The notes under the pieces are model-generated. The model did no database searches. It was not told the origin of the DNA and worked only from the letters and a program-made list of their open reading frames with translations. The translations under genes were made by a program, and so were the position numbers. Source: Smithellaceae bacterium (GTDB taxonomy: Bacteria > Desulfobacterota > Syntrophia > Syntrophales > Smithellaceae). From it: a stretch of 56,910 nucleotides of DNA. Of the stretch, positions 3,491 to 18,277 are shown one piece after another. The stretch is from assembly GCA_030690945.1 (NCBI GenBank), contig JAUYFM010000003.1:1-56910 (forward strand), given 5' to 3'. The first letter of the stretch is position 1. Every line of letters starts with the position of its first letter.

Positions 3491-4834
3491 TTACCTCGTT
3501 GAGGACTGGAGTAATTTCATATGGGCGTCCACAAGACTGAAAAGCCCATGTTCTCGAAAGAATTTATTCGGCCAGCGTAAATGATCCATATTGCCACTGA
3601 TACCTTTGGAACCCTTGCTGCGTTTCCGCAGGATGCTGCGCAGGCGACGCCTGATCCATCCATCAAGTGCCGGAAACGTCCACTTATGGCTGTGTTTGAA
3701 ATACTCAAACCATCCCTTAAGCGTGCGATTCACGTTCACCGCAATGGCGGACAGACTTGTGCCGTTGCTGCGCCCGGTATGGGCTCGAATGGCGTCTTTG
3801 AGCTTCCGCAGACTCTTCTTGCGGGGCCACCGTGTGCCTCGCTCGAAGTGGTATCCAAGGAAGTCAAATCCCTGACCCGGAAGGGTGGCGTCTATCACGC
3901 GGGTCTTCTCAGGATGCAAGACCAGCCCCCTTTCCGCAATCAGTTGTTGCACCTGGTGCAGGGCATTGCTTGCTTCCGATTCGTCACGACACATAATGAC
4001 AAAATCATCGGCATATCGGATCATTTGAAAACCTGCCGCATCCATCGCCTCATCAACGGGATGAAGGTAGAGGTTGGCCAACAGGGGACTGATAACGGCG
4101 CCTTGGGGTGTTCCTGCTTCGGGCGTCCACCGGGAAAGCCCCTCCATGATGTCCTGACCGAGAAATCGTTCGATCAGCTCAAGCAGGCGGCCATCGGCAA
4201 TATACCGGCGAACTTCCTGCATCAGTTTATCATGGGGAATGCTGTCAAAGTACGCCTTCAGATCGGCATCCACTACACAGGTATAGCCGGCCTTCAGGAA
4301 CCGATCCACTTCCCGCAAGGCATCCTTGCTTCCTCTGTTTGGCCTGAAACCGTAGCTATGAGTGTTGAACTTCCTCTCGAAGATAGGCTCTATTGCCAGC
4401 CTTATCGCCGCCTGGACTACCCGATCCCGCACGGCAGGGATACCCAGGGGCCGCTTCTCTCTACTGCCAAGCTTGTCTATATAGACCCGCTTGATCGGTC
4501 GCGGTCGGTATGTTCCTGTGCGGAGTTCTTCTTCCAGTTTGGCGATGTTTTCCTCAAGCTTCTGCTCAAACCTCTCCACGCTTTCATGATCCGTCCCGGC
4601 ACTCCCGCTGTTCCTTCTGACCGCCTTCCAGGCGGCGTGAAGGGTCGTTGGCCGGTACACCTTATCAATCAGGCTGAACCAAACTTCTCCTTTCACCCCC
4701 TTTTCGAGGGCCTCCAGCATGCGCTCCGTCCATATGGAACGTTCCACCCAGTCATAATGCCGGGCTTCTCCCGCTTGTTTAGTCCCGCTGGTGCGGGACA
4801 CTGCCACGGGTACTGTTTCGCTCTGTATCAACAT
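3491..4834 (-). CDS. ltrA: group II intron reverse transcriptase/maturase
   Basis: 447-residue intron-encoded protein that helps the intron RNA splice and copies it into DNA at a new site. The reverse transcriptase domain (about residues 70-330) has RPLGIPAVRDRVVQ, the GTPQGAVISPLLANLYL block and the catalytic YADDFVIMC. The maturase X domain (about 350-440) has GWFEYFKHS and RWPNKFFREHGLFSLV. No HNH endonuclease domain follows, as in the shorter En-minus class. Start chosen at the ATG with AGGGAG ten bases upstream. The long plus-strand frame over this gene (3581-5371) is its shadow. Confidence 0.93.
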   Translation of the reverse strand: MLIQSETVPVAVSRTSGTKQAGEARHYDWVERSIWTERMLEALEKGVKGEVWFSLIDKVYRPTTLHAAWKAVRRNSGSAGTDHESVERFEQKLEENIAKLEEELRTGTYRPRPIKRVYIDKLGSREKRPLGIPAVRDRVVQAAIRLAIEPIFERKFNTHSYGFRPNRGSKDALREVDRFLKAGYTCVVDADLKAYFDSIPHDKLMQEVRRYIADGRLLELIERFLGQDIMEGLSRWTPEAGTPQGAVISPLLANLYLHPVDEAMDAAGFQMIRYADDFVIMCRDESEASNALHQVQQLIAERGLVLHPEKTRVIDATLPGQGFDFLGYHFERGTRWPRKKSLRKLKDAIRAHTGRSNGTSLSAIAVNVNRTLKGWFEYFKHSHKWTFPALDGWIRRRLRSILRKRSKGSKGISGNMDHLRWPNKFFREHGLFSLVDAHMKLLQSSTR

Positions 4835-6504: not shown

Positions 6505-9249
6505 TCAGCAGCCGCTCTTCCGGCGTTTTTGTTTTTCAGGCGGAAACAGGCTGGTGTATTTCTGATACAATTCAAATAAAAATGCCACGCGCTGGGCTTC
6601 GGTTTGAAAATTGGTTTTGCCGTAAGCGGTATCCACCGTTTTGTCTAGATGCTTATGGGCCTTGTGCAAGACGGGCGGCATGGTGAGGGGATCGTAAAGA
6701 TCGGCCAAAGATGATCCGGGAAATTGCGTGCGTGCATCCAGCACGGCCTGTGCGGCGGATTCAATGGCTTGCTTTTGCTTTTCACTAGGATTTTCCGGCC
6801 AGGGAAAATTGTTGTAAACAATGCCTGCTGAATATCTGTAATCGTTCTTCAAACGCCCACATACAGTGCGCATCCAGGCATTGTGCATAGTGGAGGTTAA
6901 AATGCCGAAATGATAGAGCCCTGCACCGCAAATGGTAAACAATTCACTGGCCACGACAATGTCGCTGCTTAAAAAACCGATAGGGATGTAATACCTTTTT
7001 TCGGATGAAGTCTTGGGAATTGCCAGATAATTCTCTGTTGGCTGTCTGTCTTCAGCAAATAATGCGGGCGTCCCCGCATCTTTCCTTGTAGCTTCCTTTG
7101 TGCTGGATAACCGAAATTTTCTGACTTCGTTTATTCTTGCAATCACAGAAGGCATAAGTTTTAGTTTTTCCGGCGAACAATCCTTGAGCCAGAGACAATG
7201 GCGAGGTGCGTTATGAATAAAATCTTCGGCGCTGAGGTATGTTTTTATATAATCCTGCGCTACTGGCTCTCTGTTTATTAGATCATTCATTTCGTCTTCA
7301 GATAAAATAAGATTGCCACCATCTGTCGGTTTGCTGCCGAATAAAACTTCAGGAACATTACAAATCGGATGCCTTCTATTCTCTAAAATGATGTTCGCTG
7401 CATCCACCAAATAAGGATTAATTTGCTTTGCCTGACTGGCATGAGCCTCGCCCTTGATATGTTCATAATCAAACAGCCATTTAGTTTGAGTGTCGTGCAG
7501 GGCAAATCCAATAATCACGCAATGTACTGCCGCCTTACCTTTGGCTTCGTTATTCCATTGAAAAGTGCGATGAGCGAAATTGATATGAAGTCCCCTACTC
7601 ACAAGACCAGGCCATAGCATATAGACTTGTTCGCCTTGTGTAATAGAATTGGTGGAAACAAATGCCGCGCCAATAGATGGTTCGGTCTTCATATAATCAG
7701 CGGCCTTACGATACCAGGCTGTGACATAATCAAGGCTGCTTGCACTCTTCATTCCGGCGAAGACGTGTTCCATGTCAGTTTTTTGTTCACTGCTCTGAAA
7801 GTTTTTTCCCACAAACGGTGGATTGCCCATAATATAACTAACCTGCCAGGGGGGCACGACGGTTTTCCAGTCAATTTGCAGCGCGTTGCCGCAGACAATC
7901 GTGCTGCTTGTCTGTAAGGGAATGCGGACAAAGTAAAGGCCAAACTCTTCCGATACCAGCAAATTCATTTGGTGATCCATCAGCCACAGGGTCACCTGCG
8001 CAATCTGCGCGGGGAACTCTTCAATCTCGATGCCGAAAAACTGATCGACGTTCAAATGAAGCAATGAATGCACATCCAACTCACTCTGCGCATCGGCGCG
8101 AGATGCCCGCAATACCGCCAGCTCCAGTAAGCGTAATTCACGGTAAGCGATGACGAGAAAGTTGCCGCAACCACAGGCGGGGTCAAGAAAGTTCAGCCGC
8201 CGCAACTTTTTATGAAATTCAAACAATTTGTTCTTGTTGTGTTTGATTTTCTCAAACTCTTCCCACAGCGCATCCAGAAAGAGCGGCTTGATCAGCTTAA
8301 GAATGTTTTGTTCACTGGTATAATGTGCACCGAGATTGCGCCGCGCGGCTTTATCCATGATGGACTGGAAAAGCGAACCGAAAATTGCGGGCGATATCCT
8401 GCTCCAGTCCAGCCCGCAGCAATCCAGGAGCGCCTGCCGCATGGCGGTGTCAAAGCTTGCCGTCGGCAGCATCTCTTCAAACAGCTTGCCGTTGACATAA
8501 GGAAATGCGGCAAGTTGTTCATCGAGATTTGTCAGACGTTTTTCGCGCGGTGTGTTTAAAACCTGAAATAAAGTGCTGATATGATGGGCAAGATCGGAGC
8601 CGTCTTCACCGGTACGCTGTTCAATGTACTCCTGAAACTGCTGGCGCTCAAAAATGCCGGTGTCTTCGGCAAACAGGCAGAACAACAAACGCACCAGATA
8701 CAGTTCCAGCGGATGCCCGCTATAACCGACATCCTTCATCTGGTCATGCAGTTTGCCCATCTGCAAGGCAGCCTTGATGTTGACCGGGTCCTGCGCCTGA
8801 ATTTTGTGCGTTTGATAACCGGCAATAAAACCAAACAGGCGCACGTTCTTGTGCAATTCTTTCAGTTCAAACTCGTGTTGTTCGTTTTCTTCCAGATCAT
8901 AAAGACGAAAACGGGCAAAGTCCGATACCAGCACATATTTGGGCAAGTCGCGTTCGCGGATACCGTCAAAATAATCCAGCGCCTGCGTATAAGCCTTGTC
9001 GAGACTTTTACCGCGCGACTTGTGTTCGACAATCAGGATGCCCTTCCAGAACAGGTCGATAAAGCCCTGCTTGTCGCCCAGCTTTTTGACCGGTTCTTCA
9101 AAACTGGCGACGCGTTTGCGGGAAATGCCAAATACGTTGAAAAAACTATCCCAAAAGGATTTTGCTTCGGCATCCTCGGCGCTTTCCTCTTGCCATTCTT
9201 TGGAAAAGGCGAGTGAGCGTGTTTTAATTTCGTTCCAGCTTAGCGGCAT
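6505..9249 (-). CDS. MmeI-like (type IIL) restriction-modification enzyme
   Basis: 914 residues carrying nuclease, methyltransferase and specificity in one chain. N-terminal PD-(D/E)XK nuclease: Asp65 in FIDLFW, Glu75 and Lys77 in IVEHKSRG. A helical linker with GAHYTSEQNILKLI leads to an N6-adenine methyltransferase: SAM motif I FLDPACGCGNFL (354-365) and catalytic motif IV NPPF (476-479). The C-terminal third would hold the target-recognition domain (YYIPIGFLSSDIV, NDYRYSAGIVYNNFPWP). Such enzymes methylate one strand of a short asymmetric site and cut outside it; single-gene systems are complete without partners. No second R-M gene is adjacent. The DNA site cannot be predicted by reading. 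Confidence 0.9.
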   Translation of the reverse strand: MPLSWNEIKTRSLAFSKEWQEESAEDAEAKSFWDSFFNVFGISRKRVASFEEPVKKLGDKQGFIDLFWKGILIVEHKSRGKSLDKAYTQALDYFDGIRERDLPKYVLVSDFARFRLYDLEENEQHEFELKELHKNVRLFGFIAGYQTHKIQAQDPVNIKAALQMGKLHDQMKDVGYSGHPLELYLVRLLFCLFAEDTGIFERQQFQEYIEQRTGEDGSDLAHHISTLFQVLNTPREKRLTNLDEQLAAFPYVNGKLFEEMLPTASFDTAMRQALLDCCGLDWSRISPAIFGSLFQSIMDKAARRNLGAHYTSEQNILKLIKPLFLDALWEEFEKIKHNKNKLFEFHKKLRRLNFLDPACGCGNFLVIAYRELRLLELAVLRASRADAQSELDVHSLLHLNVDQFFGIEIEEFPAQIAQVTLWLMDHQMNLLVSEEFGLYFVRIPLQTSSTIVCGNALQIDWKTVVPPWQVSYIMGNPPFVGKNFQSSEQKTDMEHVFAGMKSASSLDYVTAWYRKAADYMKTEPSIGAAFVSTNSITQGEQVYMLWPGLVSRGLHINFAHRTFQWNNEAKGKAAVHCVIIGFALHDTQTKWLFDYEHIKGEAHASQAKQINPYLVDAANIILENRRHPICNVPEVLFGSKPTDGGNLILSEDEMNDLINREPVAQDYIKTYLSAEDFIHNAPRHCLWLKDCSPEKLKLMPSVIARINEVRKFRLSSTKEATRKDAGTPALFAEDRQPTENYLAIPKTSSEKRYYIPIGFLSSDIVVASELFTICGAGLYHFGILTSTMHNAWMRTVCGRLKNDYRYSAGIVYNNFPWPENPSEKQKQAIESAAQAVLDARTQFPGSSLADLYDPLTMPPVLHKAHKHLDKTVDTAYGKTNFQTEAQRVAFLFELYQKYTSLFPPEKQKRRKSGC

Positions 9250-9459: not shown

Positions 9460-9510
9460 TCCTTCCACGAAAAAGAAGGTCCTGTCAAATAACAGGGAAA
9501 GGCATTGCTT

Positions 9511-11793
9511 ATGGCATTGGGAAAGAAGATATGTTTCTTGTCTGCTGCAATCCTGGCGGCGCTGTTATTAACCGGTTGCGCCGCGTCGTTTAACAGCCGG
9601 GGATTGAACCTGGCCGCCGAGGCGAATTACACACAAATCGTCAAAGAATTTGAACCGCAGCAGGAAAAATACACCGGTCTGCCTTTTCAGGACTTGATCT
9701 ACCTTTGCTCGGCCTACGGCGAATTGAAAAATTACCGGAAACTCTTTCCCTGTCTGGAAGCGGCGCAGGCCAAGGTAAACACAGGCGATTTTACAGCCGA
9801 CGCGTGGAACCATTCGGCAACCCCGTCGAGATTAAAGGCCATTGCCCTGATTGAACTGGGACAGTACGATGAGGCGGTCCGGGCCGCCGAAATCGCCAAC
9901 AAAATAGTTGTCGATAAACAATTGACGCGATTTGAAGAAATCAAGATTCTGGAAGTCCTGGGCATTGCCTACGCCCTGGCCGGTAAAACGGATAAAGCCA
10001 ATGCCACAGCCGACCAGCTCAAGGGATTATATCTGGGTTATCCCTACATGCTGGTCACGGATGATCGCAACATTGCGCTGGCCAGAATTTACATCATCCT
10101 CAGGAAATACTCCGACGCCATCAATATCGTTTCCTACAAGTTTGATGACTCGAATGCCTTTCTGAAAACCATCAGCGGGTGGGACGTCTTCGTCAACAAT
10201 AAGCTTTCTTTTGAGTTTATGAAGAACAAGAGCCTTATGGAAGTGGGACGCACGTCCGAGGCCAAACAGGGCTACGACGCTCTTCTCGCGTATCCCTACA
10301 TGCAGGATCGCGGGGAAATGCACTGGATCATTCTCTTTGACCGGGGACGGATCGCCGAAAAAGAAGGCAACCGCAAAGAAGCGATCGGGTTTTACGAAAA
10401 AGCGGCTGAGGTCGTCGAACAGCAACGGTCCACCATCAATGTCGAGGCGAGCAAAATCGGATTTGTCGGGAATAAGCAGGCCGTTTATCACCGCCTGATC
10501 ACGTCGCTCTATGCCGACAAACAATACGGGAAAGCGTTCGAATATGTGGAGCGTTCCAAATCCCGCGCGCTGGTGGATCTCCTGGCCGGCAAGAAAAACT
10601 TTGCCGTAAAGACGACGGGAAATGTGGAACAGGTGCGCGATGTCCTGGTTGCCGCAGACAAATCGGAAGAAGATATTCTAGCCCTGGATAGCAAAATGGA
10701 CAAGTCCCGAAGCCGGAGCATTGTCGTCAAGGCGCGTCGGGATTTGCAACGCGAGGCTCCGGAGTTGGCCTCGCTGGTGACGGTTGCCTCCGCGCCCGTA
10801 TCCGACATCCAGTCTTATATTCCGCGGGGCGAGGCTCTGGTTGAATACTACTATAACGGCGATGATATGTTTGCTTTTGTCCTTTCCGAGCGTGGTTTGC
10901 AAAGCGTCAAGCTTCAGGCAGCCGGGCTTGCCGAAGACGTGGCCGCCTTTCGGAAGGCCCTGGAAAATCCCCGTTCGCAGACCACGTTGACGCCGTCAGG
11001 CAGGCTTTATTCCCGTTTATTCAAACCTCTGGAAGGTGCGCTCTATGGCCGCGACGTTATTATCGTCCCGCACGGTCTGCTGCACTACATTCCCATGAAT
11101 GCCCTGCATGATGGGAAACAGTATCTGATCGACCGGTATAAAATCCGGTTAATGCCCAGCGCCAGCGCCATGAAATATCTCGGAGAGAAAAAAGGAGGAA
11201 AACGAGGCGGCATCCTGGCCTTCGGCAATCCCGATCTCGGTGATCCCGGTCATGATCTTGCCTTTGCCCAGAAAGAGGCTGTGGACGTTGCAAAAATATG
11301 GCCGCGCTCAAAAGTCTATGTGCGCAAAGAAGCCACGGAAGATGCCCTGCGCAATCACGGGTCGGACTTTAACATCATTCACTTCGCCACACACGGCCGG
11401 TTTTCACCAGACAGCCCGTTGCAGTCCGCTCTTCTTTTATCGCCCGACGTCCGTTCCAACGGTCTTTTGACCGTGGACAAGCTTTATTCCATGCAGCTTG
11501 GCGCCAATCTGGTAACCCTGAGCGCCTGTGAAACAGGCTTGAGCAAAGTGGCCAACGGAGATGATCTGGTGGGACTGACGCGGGGATTTCTCTATGCCGG
11601 GGCAAGCTCCATTGTAGCCAGTCTCTGGAAAGTGGACGATCTGGCCACGGCCCACCTGATGATCCGGTTCTATCAGGGCATGCAGCAAACGGATAAGCTG
11701 AACGCCTTGCGGAACGCTCAACTGGAGACGCGCAAAAAATATCCGCATCCTTATTACTGGGCGTCCTTTCAGCTGACCGGGAGCGCCCGATAA
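9511..11793 (+). CDS. TPR/CHAT-domain lipoprotein, predicted caspase-like peptidase
   Basis: 760 residues. A lipoprotein signal peptide ends LLLTGC (Cys23), so the protein is anchored in the envelope. Residues ~100-370 are helical TPR-like repeats (for example AEKEGNRKEAIGFYEKAAEV). The C-terminal CHAT domain keeps the caspase-type dyad: His628 in HFATHG and Cys673 in LSACETG, and the typical RGFLYAGASSIVASLW. CHAT proteins are peptidases in several bacterial systems, mostly cytoplasmic; an exported copy is less usual. ATG at 9511 is chosen because AAAGG sits 8 bases before it; a TTG at 9505 is possible. It converges on the LPP20-like gene. No effector substrate or partner is visible nearby. 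Confidence 0.85.
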   Translation: MALGKKICFLSAAILAALLLTGCAASFNSRGLNLAAEANYTQIVKEFEPQQEKYTGLPFQDLIYLCSAYGELKNYRKLFPCLEAAQAKVNTGDFTADAWNHSATPSRLKAIALIELGQYDEAVRAAEIANKIVVDKQLTRFEEIKILEVLGIAYALAGKTDKANATADQLKGLYLGYPYMLVTDDRNIALARIYIILRKYSDAINIVSYKFDDSNAFLKTISGWDVFVNNKLSFEFMKNKSLMEVGRTSEAKQGYDALLAYPYMQDRGEMHWIILFDRGRIAEKEGNRKEAIGFYEKAAEVVEQQRSTINVEASKIGFVGNKQAVYHRLITSLYADKQYGKAFEYVERSKSRALVDLLAGKKNFAVKTTGNVEQVRDVLVAADKSEEDILALDSKMDKSRSRSIVVKARRDLQREAPELASLVTVASAPVSDIQSYIPRGEALVEYYYNGDDMFAFVLSERGLQSVKLQAAGLAEDVAAFRKALENPRSQTTLTPSGRLYSRLFKPLEGALYGRDVIIVPHGLLHYIPMNALHDGKQYLIDRYKIRLMPSASAMKYLGEKKGGKRGGILAFGNPDLGDPGHDLAFAQKEAVDVAKIWPRSKVYVRKEATEDALRNHGSDFNIIHFATHGRFSPDSPLQSALLLSPDVRSNGLLTVDKLYSMQLGANLVTLSACETGLSKVANGDDLVGLTRGFLYAGASSIVASLWKVDDLATAHLMIRFYQGMQQTDKLNALRNAQLETRKKYPHPYYWASFQLTGSAR

Positions 11794-11878
11794 CCGGAAA
11801 TAAATTAGTTTAATTCAACCACCTCGCGAGCTCGCTACGGAGAATGTCCGCGCGTCGATAGCGCAACTGATGATTGGA

Positions 11879-12790
11879 TCAGTCCAGAACAACCATGACC
11901 CGGCATTTCTGGAGGAAGGTCAGGTTTTCCTTCGCGGAGCGAATCTTGTTGGCGTCATCAGTGCTGATAATGAATTCCGACATGCCCCCGCCCTGTGCGC
12001 GGACAGCCTTGACGGTCAAGGGATTGCTGGTGACTCTGGCGTTACTTTGTGCGGCAGTCAGATCACGGGCATAACCGCAAATGCCCTGCTGGACGGCATA
12101 GTCTTTTTTCACAATCAGGGTTCCGTAAACTTCAGCGCCGTTTTCGTCAAAGATTTTGGGAGACATGGCCGGACGGCCCTGAAGGCCTCGGCCATCGATA
12201 ACCAGCCCGGTATAAACTTCATCCTTCGGCGCAGGCTTTTTGGAAAAAGGCACGGGTTTATGCTCCTTCATGTCTTCCTTTTTATCATCGGCAATGACCT
12301 GAGGAATAACCGCTTTGGCCACACCGGACAGGGGCATGCGCACGGTCACTTCCACTGTTCCATCCGACAGATATTCCTTTTTTACAATAGCCGCTCCCTT
12401 GACCATGCCGTTTATGGCGGTGTTGATCACATCGCTCTCCACAACAAAGTCTTTGACAGTTGTTTTAGAATCGATCTGGACACCCTGCACGGTTTCCAGC
12501 ATGTTTCTGTAGGCATCAACCTGGGCGGCCCGAAGCGCCATGGGGCGCGCCTGAGGTTTCCCGTAATATTGCTCCGGTGGCGCGCCTGTTCCAACGGCTT
12601 CTATATATCCATCCTGATAGTTCACCAGTCCCTTGTCGCCTACCTGATTCGTTACCTTTGATTCGATAATCTTCGCCCAATCCGTCATACCGACCTTGCC
12701 GTCTTTGTTCTCCTCTGCAAAGCCGACGCCGGCACACAGAAGAATGATACTGACAACGATTGAGATTCCCACTTTATACAGCGACTTCAT
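11879..12790 (-). CDS. secreted LPP20-like domain protein
   Basis: 303 residues with a signal peptide (about 1-25, ending GVGFAEE). The middle holds the LPP20/FlgT-like fold: RPMALRAAQVDAYRNMLE followed by GVQIDSKTTVKDF and a MVKGAAIVKKEYLSDGTVEVTVRMPL strand pair. A second C-terminal beta domain has YTGLVIDGRGLQGRPAMSPKI. Proteins of this kind are outer-membrane or periplasmic factors linked to flagellar or secretin assembly, but none of those genes is nearby. There is no lipobox Cys at the cleavage site, so it is probably soluble. GGAGGAGG precedes the ATG. Confidence 0.7.
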   Translation of the reverse strand: MKSLYKVGISIVVSIILLCAGVGFAEENKDGKVGMTDWAKIIESKVTNQVGDKGLVNYQDGYIEAVGTGAPPEQYYGKPQARPMALRAAQVDAYRNMLETVQGVQIDSKTTVKDFVVESDVINTAINGMVKGAAIVKKEYLSDGTVEVTVRMPLSGVAKAVIPQVIADDKKEDMKEHKPVPFSKKPAPKDEVYTGLVIDGRGLQGRPAMSPKIFDENGAEVYGTLIVKKDYAVQQGICGYARDLTAAQSNARVTSNPLTVKAVRAQGGGMSEFIISTDDANKIRSAKENLTFLQKCRVMVVLD

Positions 12791-13102
12791 AACAGGCCTC
12801 CTCCATTTTAAGAATACAAAATTTATTGCGTTGATATTGAAGGCTTTATATCATAATTTAAGCCAGATTCCGATCAGAAAATACCTGGAACAAATTATTA
12901 CCATTGGCACAATTATTGAAGCAATTATGAATCGTTTGCAGTAAAAGAATGAATTAAGCAAAGGCGCCTAAAGCCATAAGAAAGTAGTTTTACCGCAACC
13001 AATTAAATTAACTTGCTTTTTGTTAAGTAGGAAGAATTTTCTACCCGATGCAAGTCTTAAAATAAACCGATTTACGGCGTACAAATTTGTTCCATAAAAA
13101 CG
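12791..13102. other. intergenic region, no gene
   Basis: 312 bases, AT-rich, between the divergent LPP20-like gene and the KaiC/PPDK-type gene. It must carry both promoters, but I could not pick convincing -35/-10 pairs. A TGGCAC word at 12904 lacks the matching -12 GC of a sigma54 promoter. Confidence 0.5.
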
Positions 13103-15715
13103 ATGGATAAGGATAAAAATATTATGACACCCTACACCCGCGTCAGCACAGGAATGATCGGCTTGGATGAAATACTCAATTATCTGCAAATGGGCGACAA
13201 TGTCGTTTATCAGGTTGACGATATTGAAGACTACAAAAAGTTTGTCGCTCCTTATGTGGAAACCGCCCTGGCTCGTAATCAGCGTCTTGTCTATATGCGC
13301 TTTGCCAACCACCCTCCCCTTCTGGAACCAGACAAAAAAATTAAAGTTTATAAACTCAATGCGAATAAGGGCTTTGAATCATTTTCCACCCAGGTGCATA
13401 ACATCGTCCGGGATGAAGGACGGGATGTGTTTTATGTTTTTGACTGTCTGTCCGATCTGCTCATGGCCTGGGCGACGGATCTGATGATCGGCAATTTCTT
13501 TGTCATCACCTGCCCCTACCTGTTTGAATTAAACACGGTGGCCTACTTTGCGATTCTGCGCAGCCGCCACTCATTCAAGACCGTAGCGCGTATTCGCGAA
13601 ACCACACAGGTGCTGCTGGATGTATACAACAACAACGGCAAAATATGCGTCCATCCGCTCAAGGCCTGGAAACGCTACACACCGACAATGTATCTGCCGC
13701 ACGTCATGGAAGGTGATAAATTTGTCCCGATCTTAAACAGCGCGGATGCCGCAAGTATTCTGTCTTACCTGACGGACAAGAATGCCACCGGCGGCGTGCG
13801 CAATCTCGATTATTGGGACCGTATCTTCCTCAAAGCGACTACCATTCTGGAAGACCCGGATGCCGTGAAAGAACAGCAGGACATGGTGGAATCTCTCTCA
13901 CGCGTGCTGATCGGACGCGAGAAAAGGATGCTGTCGCTGGTGAAGGAATACTTCTCTCTGGAAGATCTGGTGGAGATCAAGAAACGCCTGATCGGCACGG
14001 GGTTTATCGGCGGCAAATCCGTGGGCATGCTACTGGCGCGCAACATCCTGCGCAAAGATGCGACCTTTGACTGGAACGCCGAACTGGAAATACACGATTC
14101 TTTTTACATCGGCTCGGATATTTTCTATTCCTACATGGTGCAAAACGGCTGGTGGAAACTGTTGATGGCGCAAAAAACAGACGAGGGCTATTTTGAAGTC
14201 GCCAAAGAGTTGAAAAGCAAAATGCTGCATGGCGTCTTCCCCGACGAAGTCAAGGAACAGTTCCTGCTCATGCTGGAATACTTCGGGCAATCGCCCATCA
14301 TTGTGCGCTCCAGTTCTCTTTTGGAAGACGCTTTCGGCAATGCCTTTGCCGGAAAATATGAAAGCTACTTCTGTCCCAACCAGGGATCACCGGAAGTCCG
14401 GTACCGGCATTTTGAAGAAGCCGTCCGCAAAATATTTGCCTCTACCATGAGCGAAGACGCTCTGACCTACCGCCAGCAGCGCGGCATGGCCCAGGAAGAC
14501 GAGCAAATGGCGCTTTTGGTTCAACGCGTCTCCGGCTCCCACCGTAACACCTATTTCTTCCCCGACCTGGCGGGTGTTGGTTTATCCTATAATACCTTTG
14601 TCTGGCAAAAAGGCATGGACCCCAAAGCCGGTATGCTGCGCATTGTCTTTGGTCTGGGGACCCGAGCGGTCAATCGCGTGGAAAATGATTATCCGCGCAT
14701 CGTCGCGCTCGACGCGCCGCTCACCAAGCCCTACGCCAAGCTGGAAGATGTGCAGCGATTTTCACAACATGAAGTGGATATCCTGAATTTGCAAGACAAT
14801 GACTTTCAAACGCTTCCGGCGGCGGATTTGCTTACGGATTCCATCGAAACGCATCTGGACCTGATCGCCACGCGCGACATGGCCGCATCCGCATATTTGC
14901 AATCACAGGGCAAAAACGCCAAAGACGCGTGGATCCTGACCTTCGACGAGTTGCTCGCCAGCACGCCATTTGCCGGGACGATGTCGAAAATGCTGAAAAA
15001 GCTGGAGCAGGTTTATCGCTATCCGGTTGATATTGAATTTACCGTTAACTTTAACACCCAGGGCAAAACACAGATTAATCTACTGCAATGCCGCCCCTTC
15101 CAGACCAAGGGCCATTACAGCCGGGTGGAATTGCCGGAAAAAATCAGCAAATCAAAAATTCTACTGCAACAGGAAGCCAATTTTATGGGCGGCAGTATCT
15201 ATCAAGCCATATCCCGTATCATCCATATTGATCCTCAGGGCTATGCCGGATTAAGTCTTTCTGAAAAGTATGAAGTTGCCAGACTTACGGGCAGGTTAAA
15301 TAAGCAGATCGGCAAACGCGATAAAATGCCGACCATTCTATTGGGACCGGGACGCTGGGGAACAACAACTCCGGCCATGGGCGTGCCTGTCCGGTTTTCG
15401 GAAATCAACAATATTACGGCTATTGGCGAAATAGCTTATCAGGATGGCTCGCTGATTCCTGATTTATCTTTTGGAACGCATTTTTTCCAGGACATGGTGG
15501 AAATGGATATTTTTTACGTGGCCATCTACCCCGAAAAAGACGGCGTCATTTTCAATACCGCCTGGATGAAAAAACAGCCGAACATTTTGACGGATCTGAT
15601 GCCGGACGATGAACGCTTCTTGGATGTGGTGCATGTGTATGATGTGCGGGCTAAGGATTTACGGCTCCTCTCGGATATCGTGACGCAGAAGATGATCTGC
15701 TTCTTTGGAAAGTAG
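13103..15715 (+). CDS. KaiC-like domain fused to PEP/pyruvate-binding (PPDK_N) domain
   Basis: 870 residues. Residues ~10-225 resemble a RecA/KaiC-type ATPase (STGMIGLDEIL opening, YVFDCLSDLL where Walker B would be), but the Walker A loop is gone: GDNVVYQVDDIEDYKKF has no GKT. Residues ~300-720 match the ATP-grasp PEP/pyruvate-binding domain of PPDK and PEP synthase (FIGGKSVGML with Lys305, VRSSSLLEDAFGNAFAGKYES, INLLQCRPFQ). The phosphohistidine and PEP-binding domains of real PPDK are absent, so it is not a complete dikinase. The last 130 residues (LGPGRWGTTTPAMG) are a conserved tail of this family. The role is unknown; an ATP-dependent phosphotransfer or regulatory role is inference. Start may be the ATG at 13124, which has AAGGA before it. 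Confidence 0.75.
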   Translation: MDKDKNIMTPYTRVSTGMIGLDEILNYLQMGDNVVYQVDDIEDYKKFVAPYVETALARNQRLVYMRFANHPPLLEPDKKIKVYKLNANKGFESFSTQVHNIVRDEGRDVFYVFDCLSDLLMAWATDLMIGNFFVITCPYLFELNTVAYFAILRSRHSFKTVARIRETTQVLLDVYNNNGKICVHPLKAWKRYTPTMYLPHVMEGDKFVPILNSADAASILSYLTDKNATGGVRNLDYWDRIFLKATTILEDPDAVKEQQDMVESLSRVLIGREKRMLSLVKEYFSLEDLVEIKKRLIGTGFIGGKSVGMLLARNILRKDATFDWNAELEIHDSFYIGSDIFYSYMVQNGWWKLLMAQKTDEGYFEVAKELKSKMLHGVFPDEVKEQFLLMLEYFGQSPIIVRSSSLLEDAFGNAFAGKYESYFCPNQGSPEVRYRHFEEAVRKIFASTMSEDALTYRQQRGMAQEDEQMALLVQRVSGSHRNTYFFPDLAGVGLSYNTFVWQKGMDPKAGMLRIVFGLGTRAVNRVENDYPRIVALDAPLTKPYAKLEDVQRFSQHEVDILNLQDNDFQTLPAADLLTDSIETHLDLIATRDMAASAYLQSQGKNAKDAWILTFDELLASTPFAGTMSKMLKKLEQVYRYPVDIEFTVNFNTQGKTQINLLQCRPFQTKGHYSRVELPEKISKSKILLQQEANFMGGSIYQAISRIIHIDPQGYAGLSLSEKYEVARLTGRLNKQIGKRDKMPTILLGPGRWGTTTPAMGVPVRFSEINNITAIGEIAYQDGSLIPDLSFGTHFFQDMVEMDIFYVAIYPEKDGVIFNTAWMKKQPNILTDLMPDDERFLDVVHVYDVRAKDLRLLSDIVTQKMICFFGK

Positions 15716-15721
15716 AGCTCG

Positions 15722-15763
15722 TTTTAAGTTTTAAGTTTTAAGATTTAAGATTTAAGATTTAAG
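15722..15763. repeat. heptanucleotide array, 6 units (TTTTAAG/ATTTAAG)
   Basis: Three TTTTAAG then three ATTTAAG in exact 7-base register, 6 bases after the stop of the KaiC/PPDK-type gene. Related units (CTTAAAA/CTTAAAT) occur at 22791-22818. Confidence 0.9.
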
Positions 15764-15764
15764 T

Positions 15765-15804
15765 AAAAAGAGCCGCGATCCGAAAAAGGATCGCGGCTCT
15801 TTTT
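15765..15804. terminator. bidirectional rho-independent terminator
   Basis: AAAAAGAGCCGCGATCC-gaaaaa-GGATCGCGGCTCTTTTT, a 17-base perfect stem with A-tract and T-tract, between the convergent KaiC/PPDK-type gene and gdhA. Works for either strand. Confidence 0.95.
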
Positions 15805-15814
15805 ATCCTTATAA

Positions 15815-15837
15815 CCTTCAGCCTTCAGCCTTCAGCC
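15815..15837. repeat. heptanucleotide array, 3 units (CCTTCAG)
   Basis: Three exact CCTTCAG units between the terminator and the gdhA stop codon. On the other strand the unit is CTGAAGG, in the same word family as the arrays at 20306-20333 and 52603-52665. Confidence 0.85.
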
Positions 15838-15843
15838 TATTTC

Positions 15844-17342
<1,499 letters not shown>

Positions 17343-17554
17343 ACACAAATTTGTATTTTTTCAATTTTTACGGTTCAATTTTGTATCTTTCAGATAAGCA
17401 CGAACTTGCTTTAAACATATTTTAAATAGAAATCCATTACGAATATTAAATATTTATTAGATATTGCCGGTGTTATTTTTCGGCTTGAGATAGATAATTA
17501 TATTGAAAAACGTTCTGCTTTAAATTACAGATAAACAAACATAAAGGGGCATCC

Positions 17555-18277
17555 ATGAATAAAAGAAATGTTATTGGGATAACGATCCGTTTTGCAGTCA
17601 TAACGCTCGCCGTTCTTTCTCTGATGGCCTGCGCTTCAAATCCCTCTGCCTCTAAAGTAAAAACCGCCACCCTCCTGTCGGCCGATAAAAACGTCGCGTC
17701 TGATATAAGCCAGGTTCTCCTGGTGATGGATGACCGTTTTCTTTTTTTCAATTCCAGAAAGGTTTACGCCCTGGAAAAGTCAGATGTCACCTGGCGGCAG
17801 GCCATGGCGCCCATGGATGCCGCCATTGGCCGAAACGGCTTCGCGAAGGTCGGCGAGAAACGGGAAGGAGACGGACGAACGCCCTCCGGGCTCTATCGGC
17901 TGGGAACGGCTTTTGGATATGCCGAATCAGCCGTCACGAAAATGCCCTACCGTCAGGCTCTGGCAGATGACCTGTGGATTGACGACCCGAACGCCCCGGA
18001 TTACAACCGCTGGGTCAAACAAGGCCAAACAGGAGCTCTCTCCTACGAAAAAATGAAGCGGGATGATGATCTTTATAAATACGGAATCGTCATCGAATAT
18101 AATACCGATCCGGTCATCAAAGGGTACGGCAGCGCGATTTTTTTTCATATCTGGGCAAGCACAAAGTCAACGACGGCAGGATGCGTAGCCGTGTCCGAAG
18201 AAGACATCCTGAATATTCTTGCCTGGCTGAATCCGGCGGCCAATCCCGTCATTCTCATCAACCCTGACCCCCTATAA
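17555..18277 (+). CDS. YkuD-family L,D-transpeptidase-like lipoprotein
   Basis: 240 residues. A lipoprotein signal peptide ends SLMAC (Cys26). The YkuD domain (about 55-238) carries GDGRTPSGLYRLG and the catalytic block FFHIWASTKSTTAGCVAVS with His198 and Cys210. Such enzymes form or trim 3-3 crosslinks in peptidoglycan or attach lipoproteins in the periplasm. AAGGGG precedes the ATG. It is the first gene of a compact operon with a VanX-type dipeptidase (18-base gap) and a symporter, which points to wall turnover. Confidence 0.85.
   Translation: MNKRNVIGITIRFAVITLAVLSLMACASNPSASKVKTATLLSADKNVASDISQVLLVMDDRFLFFNSRKVYALEKSDVTWRQAMAPMDAAIGRNGFAKVGEKREGDGRTPSGLYRLGTAFGYAESAVTKMPYRQALADDLWIDDPNAPDYNRWVKQGQTGALSYEKMKRDDDLYKYGIVIEYNTDPVIKGYGSAIFFHIWASTKSTTAGCVAVSEEDILNILAWLNPAANPVILINPDPL

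What the first reader, a model, noticed from the sequence alone, without database searches (positions are those of the whole stretch)
13103..15715. KaiC-like domain without Walker A fused to a PPDK-type ATP-grasp domain
The RecA/KaiC-like part cannot bind ATP in the usual way, while the PPDK_N part keeps its key Lys and Arg. The missing phosphohistidine domain means it must act with another protein or on another acceptor. Role is undescribed as far as I know.
Basis: partly seen in the sequence, partly recalled or inferred. Interest (0 to 1): 0.5.

Follow-up and report, generated by a model that had tools for sequence, protein, structure and literature searches.

The report
Phosphotransferase linked to ammonium assimilation
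The gene encodes an unstudied bacterial protein, a sensor-like domain that has lost its ATP loop joined to an ATP-driven phosphate-transfer machine, whose relatives in several phyla often sit next to the genes for taking up and fixing ammonium, so it is probably a missing piece of nitrogen control.

Summary
The 870-aa ORF at 13103-15715 has an N-terminal KaiC/RecA fold without Walker A (P-loop in 0 of 37 family sequences) and a PPDK-type ATP-grasp domain whose ATP-site residues are almost invariant in 174 relatives. The claim that the phosphohistidine domain is missing is probably wrong. The unannotated C-terminal 190 residues form a domain with a His (H793) invariant in 174 of 174. Its predicted fold best matches swivelling domains, among them the PPDK and rifampin-phosphotransferase His domains, but weakly (Z about 5) and without sequence similarity.

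The neighbourhood gives a role. In 57 further loci glutamate dehydrogenase lies within 1.6 kb in 47, and some ammonium-assimilation gene nearby in 51, against 0 of 20 loci of other PPDK_N-type genes. The link spans several architectures, two GDH subfamilies and three phyla; it is weaker in my first loci and fails for Firmicutes proteins of this architecture (1 of 14). A palindrome at the start codon has one other exact copy in the genome, upstream of amtB.

Best reading: a sensor-gated, ATP-driven phosphohistidine transferase serving ammonium assimilation. The nitrogen link is well supported; the phospho-relay and its target are inferred. Ten searches of the held library found no description.

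The parts
13103..15715 (+). Whole ORF, 870 aa: pseudo-KaiC / PPDK_N ATP-grasp / C-terminal His-bearing domain
13124..13780 (+). KaiC/RecA-like domain, residues 8-226, without Walker A
   Evidence: VIA-align Z about 20 to KaiC CII; P-loop in 0 of 37 family sequences
13214..13234 (+). Residues 38-44, the loop after strand 33-38 where a Walker A loop would lie (position inferred from the model's secondary structure)
   Evidence: inference
13442..13444 (+). Asp114, Walker-B-like, invariant in 37 of 37
13781..14002 (+). Mostly helical linker, residues 227-300
   Evidence: secondary structure of the model
14006..15142 (+). PPDK_N ATP-grasp domain, residues 302-680
   Evidence: Pfam PF01326 E 4.4e-53; VIA Z 22.8 to the ATP domain of RPH, 285 aligned, rmsd 3.2
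14015..14017 (+). Lys305 (counterpart of RPH/PPDK Lys22)
   Evidence: K in 173 of 174, one gap
14306..14308 (+). Arg402 (counterpart of RPH Arg117)
   Evidence: R in 173 of 174
15035..15094 (+). Glu645, Gln662, Arg664: end of the ATP site
   Evidence: 173, 172 and 174 of 174
15140..15712 (+). C-terminal domain, residues 680-870, no Pfam family; probable divergent swivelling domain
   Evidence: model pLDDT 92.9; VIA best rows Z 5.0-5.8; Pfam none with E below 0.16
15344..15361 (+). GPGRWG motif, residues 748-753; Arg751 invariant
   Evidence: R751 174 of 174
15479..15481 (+). His793 in S-x-G-T-H-F-F, proposed phosphate carrier
   Evidence: 174 of 174 across architectures; 40 of 40
13079..13092 (.). 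Palindrome GTACAAATTTGTTC just before the start, proposed operator shared with amtB
   Evidence: conserved island upstream; only one other exact place of the pattern in the 3.15-Mb genome, upstream of amtB
12905..12920 (+). sigma54-like element TGGCAC-N5-TTGA with an imperfect -12 part; tentative
   Evidence: loci were chosen among those scoring
15844..17202 (-). Glutamate dehydrogenase, convergent neighbour
   Evidence: Pfam PF00208 E 6e-89, PF02812 E 2.6e-50

Best explanation
A sensor-gated, ATP-driven phosphotransfer protein of ammonium assimilation. The ATP-grasp domain uses ATP in the dikinase way (to AMP and phosphate) to phosphorylate His793 on the C-terminal swivelling domain; the phosphate then passes to another molecule, most likely a partner protein of nitrogen assimilation such as glutamate dehydrogenase, because no third, substrate-binding domain is recognised. 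The Walker-A-less KaiC domain would be a former ATPase kept as a sensor or assembly module, in the place that a receiver domain takes in other members. Shown by computation: the KaiC fold without a P-loop, the intact ATP site, the invariant His, the neighbourhood link and the palindrome shared with amtB. Inferred: that the C-terminal domain is a phosphohistidine domain, that phosphate moves through it, what accepts it, and what the N-terminal domain senses.
For: GDH within 1.6 kb in 47 of 57 loci and any ammonium-assimilation gene in the stretch in 51 of 57, against 0 of 20 loci of other PPDK_N-type genes. The link holds for architectures A (31 of 37), B/C (8 of 11) and D (8 of 9), for two GDH subfamilies and four gene arrangements, with at least 13 changes of arrangement on the tree. 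Neighbours by Pfam: GDH, AmtB, PII, NrpR, glutamine synthetase III, glutamate synthase, sigma54 activator. Omnitrophota: 16 of 20 loci with such a gene, one with full gltB and gltD genes directly upstream. Bacteroidota: GDH beside the gene in 2 of 3 records. The palindrome before the start has one other exact place in the genome, upstream of amtB. ATP-site residues and H793, R751, E776, S789 conserved in 172-174 of 174. The C-terminal model matches swivelling domains including PPDK 385-511 and RPH 761-866; the whole model aligns to the PEPS chain 2ols up to residue 467 (Z 23.9, 357 aligned; I recall that stretch to hold its His domain). Other modules on the same core: a receiver domain in four D proteins scanned, over Pfam's cut-off in three, and a nucleotidyltransferase domain behind the core in two type C proteins.
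Against: The swivel-domain match is weak (Z at most 5.8, below the level at which a match stands out; Foldseek found none with E <= 0.001) and profile-profile comparison with canonical His domains found nothing. The spacing of the conserved S and G before H793 differs from the canonical T/SxxGGxxxH (motif from PMC12167813). The 174 sequences were chosen by an alignment that reaches past H793, so relatives that had lost the domain would not be counted. Firmicutes proteins of this architecture lack the link (1 of 14 with GDH, the other 13 with no nitrogen gene). In the first loci the figures are lower: GDH in 14 of 48 named (38 of 48 some nitrogen gene; many contigs are short) and 21 of 38 unnamed (23 of 38 some nitrogen gene). 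The 57 and the 20 were picked by hand from search lists, though before their neighbours were seen. No evidence bears on the phosphate acceptor or the ligand.
Confidence: 0.5

Rival explanations
1. A small-molecule dikinase of nitrogen or carbon metabolism: same ATP to His793 chemistry, but the acceptor is a metabolite bound by the N-terminal or C-terminal domain.
For: Among the nearest solved relatives of the ATP domain are small-molecule dikinases (RPH, HpeI), beside PEP synthase. HpeHI shows that the domains can be rearranged (PMC12167813, passages).
Against: No domain is recognised besides the pseudo-KaiC part and the two core domains; that N-terminal part is replaced by other modules in other architectures while the GDH link stays, so it can hardly hold the acceptor site.
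Confidence: 0.2
2. One reading: only an ATP-grasp half, with no phosphohistidine of its own; the C-terminal domain has another function and the phosphate goes to another protein's His or another acceptor.
For: PF00391 not detected; no sequence similarity to His domains; weak fold match. A protein that I read as PTS enzyme I could offer a His domain.
Against: An invariant His at the start of a helix in a domain whose best fold matches are swivelling domains; the other two PF00391 proteins of the genome carry PPDK_N of their own.
Confidence: 0.2
3. A catalytically dead, ATP-binding scaffold or energy sensor that regulates GDH by binding only.
For: The N-terminal domain has lost its own ATP loop; PII-type nitrogen control works by nucleotide binding (recalled).
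Against: The counterparts of residues whose mutation destroys RPH function (Lys22, Arg117; PMC4844700, passages) are kept in 173 of 174 and H793 in 174 of 174, which plain binding would hardly demand.
Confidence: 0.1

Closest known systems
Phosphoenolpyruvate synthase / pyruvate phosphate dikinase (PF01326 + PF00391 + PF02896)
   Same: ATP-grasp domain and its ATP-site residues; a His-bearing domain after it, of similar predicted fold
   Different: No recognisable PF00391 sequence, no PEP/pyruvate barrel, N-terminal extra module; scores far below the cut-off of every PEPS and PPDK model listed
Rifampin phosphotransferase and HpeHI-type small-molecule dikinases
   Same: Among the closest solved ATP-grasp structures (Z 18-26); in RPH the swivel His domain is at the C-terminus (PMC4844700, passages), as here
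   Different: No drug- or phenol-binding domain recognised; link to ammonium assimilation
KaiC / RecA-family ATPases (PF06745)
   Same: Fold of residues 8-226 (Z about 20); Walker-B-like Asp kept
   Different: No Walker A; no Pfam match for this protein; single domain fused to a phosphotransferase
[quoted passage not shown] annotated as PEP/pyruvate-binding domain-containing protein
   Same: I take these to be the D architecture met here: same ATP-grasp and C-terminal core, GDH next door in 8 of 9
   Different: Receiver (and weak DUF5752 matches) instead of pseudo-KaiC in front
Nitrogen phosphotransferase system (EI-Ntr/NPr)
   Same: Would work alike: phosphate through a swivel-domain His to a nitrogen-control target (analogy, recalled)
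   Different: Would be driven by ATP rather than PEP; only a weak fold match to the EI-Ntr N-terminal domain (5t1o, Z 4.1)

Membership tests
KaiC/RecA-like ATPase | RecA/KaiC core fold | tested here: met
   Z about 20, rmsd about 3.0 over about 200 residues to KaiC CII
KaiC/RecA-like ATPase | Walker A P-loop | tested here: not met
   0 of 37 family sequences
KaiC/RecA-like ATPase | Pfam KaiC (PF06745) match | tested here: not met
   no match for P0001 or its N part; weak, below cut-off, in two of three stand-alone relatives scanned
PEPS/PPDK dikinase | PPDK_N ATP-grasp domain | tested here: met
   PF01326 E 4.4e-53
PEPS/PPDK dikinase | ATP-site residues (Lys, Arg, Glu, Gln, Arg) | tested here: met
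   172-174 of 174
PEPS/PPDK dikinase | PF00391 phosphohistidine domain with its GGxTSH sequence | tested here: not met
   no Pfam match; hhalign probability 0.9% against 12 canonical His domains
PEPS/PPDK dikinase | swivelling beta/beta/alpha fold of the His domain | tested here: inconclusive
   best VIA rows include PPDK and RPH His domains at Z 5.0-5.3; Foldseek none at E <= 0.001
PEPS/PPDK dikinase | conserved carrier His | tested here: inconclusive
   H793 invariant in 174 of 174 at the start of a helix; superposition on PPDK's His could not be made (no coordinates)
PEPS/PPDK dikinase | PEP/pyruvate-binding barrel PF02896 | tested here: not met
   no match; no residues left for it
Rifampin phosphotransferase | NCBIfam equivalog cut-off | tested here: not met
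   35.4 bits against a cut-off of 999
Ammonium-assimilation gene set | neighbourhood with GDH, GOGAT, GS, AmtB or PII beyond control | tested here: met
   51 of 57 against 0 of 20; not in Firmicutes type A (1 of 14)
Phosphotransfer regulator | phosphorylated His and a protein acceptor | not testable with these tools
   needs biochemistry

The most novel reading that the evidence does not exclude
A new class of signal-transducing histidine phosphotransferase, built from dikinase parts and not from the histidine-kinase fold: interchangeable sensor (pseudo-KaiC, receiver, others), ATP-grasp kinase, and a divergent swivelling phosphohistidine domain, that controls glutamate dehydrogenase and ammonium uptake by phosphotransfer in several bacterial phyla, an ATP-driven counterpart of the nitrogen PTS.
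Probability: 0.3. Interest if true: 0.85.

Novelty: new variant of a known kind. Interest (0 to 1): 0.64.

Why it matters
The family is common in its phylum and reaches Omnitrophota, Firmicutes and Bacteroidota, yet the one annotated member seen carries only the name 'PEP/pyruvate-binding domain-containing protein'. The neighbourhood result gives it a process to be tested in. If the phosphate relay is real, it is a form of nitrogen control built on dikinase chemistry, and an example of an ATPase domain kept without its ATP loop in front of another ATP-using machine. Even if the relay is wrong, the GDH link in 47 of 57 loci is a usable lead for a protein with no known role.

Tried and rejected
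Naming: NCBIfam hits of this protein are to PEPS, PPDK, RPH and PigC/RedH-type models far below cut-off. Defence: PADLOC none. RNA element in 11000-18000: none in Rfam at gathering score. C-terminal domain as a sequence relative of canonical His domains: rejected at sequence level (hhalign; HMM search of PDB sequences with the C-terminal profile, best E 0.26, unrelated). The model of that domain gave no Foldseek match at E <= 0.001. Pseudo-KaiC as a nitrogen-specific module: not supported; stand-alone relatives (about 435 aa) have a nitrogen gene in the stretch in only 4 of 20 loci, two of them weak or distant matches.

Sigma54 promoter: one search used a pattern with a wrong spacing and found nothing, so it says nothing. 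One search, with the right spacing, finds amtB promoters (19 of 21 at the two higher thresholds, shuffles below 0.4), but upstream of this gene 29 of 124 at the lowest threshold (shuffles 6.3, other strand 14), 9 of 124 at the middle one (2.1; 5) and 2 of 124 at the highest (0.6; 5); for GDH 5 of 61 at the lowest (2.8; 3). The loci were chosen among those that scored, so that element's conservation there is not independent; the palindrome was not part of that choice. I rate the sigma54 site possible only. Sigma70 and terminator scans: no excess over shuffles. The palindrome: in 20 genomes of the genus it stands before this gene in 11, upstream of amtB in at least 3, near what I read as aspS in 3, and elsewhere; some places were not read.

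Self-comparison of A2 was of no use. That H793 takes the place of the PPDK His rests on the order of strands and helices, PPDK's being recalled; no superposition was possible. That the other top VIA rows (chaperonin apical, LD-carboxypeptidase) share the swivelling fold is recalled from structural classification. The phylum name Desulfobacterota for the window's group is recalled; the named relatives are titled Deltaproteobacteria, Syntrophaceae or Smithella.

Rows dropped and labels: of 60 stretches fetched for the 57-locus test three were left out (L187, L194, L195: second views of, or flanks to, loci already seen). Fragments in the list were not fetched. Six of the 57 have no nitrogen gene, four of them with the gene within 1.5 kb of the end of the stretch held. 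L091 and L093 (stand-alone KaiC-like genes) were left out of the 38 unnamed loci. L050-L068 were left out of counts as repeats of named loci. Three of the Firmicutes stretches (L241, L257, L258) are second views of L047, L042 and L044 and are in the 14 quoted. Species overlap between named and unnamed sets was not otherwise excluded. The 20 controls were chosen as weak PPDK_N-type matches; afterwards 9 of 20 showed the canonical GG-x-T-C-H motif and 0 of 20 the family's GTHFF; they were not scanned with Pfam. Labels A, B/C and D come from alignment start and score thresholds. The 174 loci and the 174 sequences are different sets.
Full report
WHAT IS THERE. The ORF at 13103-15715 (+) encodes 870 aa. 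Pfam finds only PPDK_N at residues 302-680 (E 4.4e-53). Many homologous ORFs start at the counterpart of Met8. The genome holds one copy. The nearest named relatives are metagenome-assembled genomes titled Deltaproteobacteria, Syntrophaceae or Smithella.

N-TERMINAL DOMAIN. An AlphaFold2 model from a 37-sequence alignment of window and locus proteins (A1) has pLDDT 85.8 and pTM 0.86. Residues 8-226 align to the CII domain of KaiC with Z about 20 and rmsd about 3 over about 200 residues; FlaH and other RecA-superfamily chains follow. A P-loop pattern is absent from the N part of all 37 sequences. The Walker-B-like Asp (D114) is invariant, and G31, N33, Y44, F113 and R191 are among the other invariant residues. 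So the fold is KaiC-like, the ATP loop is gone in the sampled family, and the rest is under constraint. The same domain, also without a P-loop in the one member tested, occurs in stand-alone proteins with an HTH; two of the three scanned also have a cupin.

ATP-GRASP DOMAIN. Residues 265-667 match the ATP domains of rifampin phosphotransferase and PEP synthase (Z 21-26). The counterparts of RPH Lys22 and Arg117 (named in passages of PMC4844700) are K305 and R402. In 174 family sequences, chosen by an alignment that runs from the start of this domain past H793, K305 is kept in 173 (one gap), R402 in 173, E645 in 173, Q662 in 172 and R664 in 174.

C-TERMINAL DOMAIN. Residues 680-870 match no Pfam family. 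Forty sequences from several architectures, down to 22% identity, share twelve invariant residues, among them G-x-G-R-W-G and S-x-G-x-H-F-F. In the larger set H793, R751, E776, S789 and G791 are invariant in 174 of 174. A model of this domain alone has pLDDT 92.9. H793 begins the helix between two strands. VIA-align's best rows (Z 5.0-5.8) include the swivel domains of PPDK (1dik 385-511, Z 5.3) and of RPH (5hv3 761-866, 103 aligned, Z 5.0; the carrier is His825 in PMC4844700) and the C-terminal part of a pyruvate kinase; the others are chaperonin and LD-carboxypeptidase domains, which I recall as the same fold class. In the full-length model the alignment to PEP synthase 2ols runs to its residue 467, a stretch that I recall to hold its His domain. 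Against this: Foldseek found nothing at E <= 0.001, Z is below the level that stands out, and a profile comparison with 12 canonical His domains failed. I read the domain as a divergent swivelling phosphohistidine domain, probability about 0.7.

ARCHITECTURES. The ATP-grasp plus C-terminal core occurs with at least four surroundings: A, pseudo-KaiC (this protein); B, about 160-190 other residues in front; C, about 300 residues in front and, in two of three scanned, a nucleotidyltransferase domain (PF01909) behind; D, about 430 residues or more with a receiver domain, over Pfam's cut-off in three of four scanned and just under it in the fourth, and weak DUF5752 matches. The combination of a receiver with PPDK has been noted in print as 'Bacteroides-like' (PMC5847659, passages); I take it to be D.

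NEIGHBOURHOOD. In the window the next gene, convergent, is a glutamate dehydrogenase (15844-17202). In the first loci I saw GDH, AmtB, PII, NrpR, glutamine synthetase III, glutamate synthase and a sigma54 activator again and again. To test this I picked 57 further loci by hand from the phylum listing, before seeing their neighbours, and searched them with ten reference proteins. GDH lay within 1.6 kb in 47 of 57 and at least one nitrogen-assimilation gene in the stretch in 51 of 57; twenty loci of other PPDK_N-type genes (732-899 aa, 9 of 20 with the canonical His motif, none with this family's), taken from genomes of the same searches, gave 0 of 20. By architecture: A 31 of 37, B/C 8 of 11, D 8 of 9. 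In the earlier sets the figures are lower: GDH 14 of 48 and any nitrogen gene 38 of 48 in the named loci, 21 of 38 and 23 of 38 in the unnamed. Over 174 loci with enough sequence, 89 have GDH within 1.7 kb, in four arrangements and with two GDH subfamilies. On a FastTree tree of 173 sequences the presence of GDH changes at least 32 times and its arrangement, among 88 loci with it, at least 13 times, so the pairing was kept or rebuilt through many rearrangements. Outside the phylum: Omnitrophota (phylum of L036), a nitrogen gene in 16 of 20 and GDH in 5 of 20, one locus with full gltB and gltD genes just upstream; Firmicutes, type A 1 of 14 and C-like 4 of 4; Bacteroidota, GDH beside the gene in two of three records.

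REGULATION. The upstream region of 14 chosen loci is poorly conserved (mean 42%) save two islands: TGGCAC-N5-TTGA about 200 bp before the start (the loci had been chosen for it) and a palindrome G[TA]ACAA[AT]TTTGT[TA]C at 13079-13092. In the 3.15-Mb genome the pattern GNACAAWTTTGTNC has two exact places: here and upstream of an amtB gene. In the genus it stands before this gene in 11 of 20 genomes searched, and upstream of amtB in at least 3, this genome included. This ties the gene to ammonium uptake independently of gene order.

HOW IT MOST LIKELY WORKS. ATP is split in the ATP-grasp domain in the dikinase way, H793 takes the phosphate, the C-terminal domain swings away and hands it on. With no third substrate domain recognised and with exchangeable N-terminal modules, I favour a regulatory phosphotransfer to a protein of ammonium assimilation, GDH first, gated by the N-terminal module. 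Shown by computation: the KaiC and ATP-grasp folds, the conservation, the neighbourhood and the shared palindrome. Inferred: the swivel identity, the phosphate path, the acceptor and the signal.

COMPARISON AND NOVELTY. It may work like a dikinase but is not a member of PEPS/PPDK: it lacks PF00391 and the barrel. It has the KaiC fold but is not a KaiC ATPase. Ten literature searches in the held open-access library gave no paper on this protein's function or its GDH link in the listings I saw; most subscription papers are not in that library. I call it a new variant of a known kind.

Noticed in passing
L089:4574-5878, L091, L093, L259-L278: A widespread family of about 435 aa with the same KaiC-like domain (no P-loop in the one checked) followed by an HTH and, in two of three scanned, a cupin; not tied to nitrogen genes (4 of 20).
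   Followed up: partly
L011:8627-12307, also directly after the gene in other Smithella-type loci: A gene of about 1230 aa with SIS and glutamine-amidotransferase domains that often follows this gene.
   Followed up: partly
window 9505-11793 +: Lipoprotein-like protein with weak TPR matches and a CHAT domain (Pfam E 1.6e-68).
   Followed up: partly
window 6505-9249 -: MmeI-type combined restriction-modification protein, 914 aa, five MmeI domains matched.
   Followed up: partly
window 3491-4834 -: Group II intron reverse transcriptase with maturase domain.
   Followed up: partly
L287, L288, L292: The same palindrome also stands near what I read as aspS (aspartyl-tRNA synthetase) in three genomes of the genus.
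   Followed up: no
L253, L078: Type C relatives carry a nucleotidyltransferase domain behind the core and sit beside GDH; such domains occur in the nitrogen regulators GlnD and GlnE (recalled).
   Followed up: no
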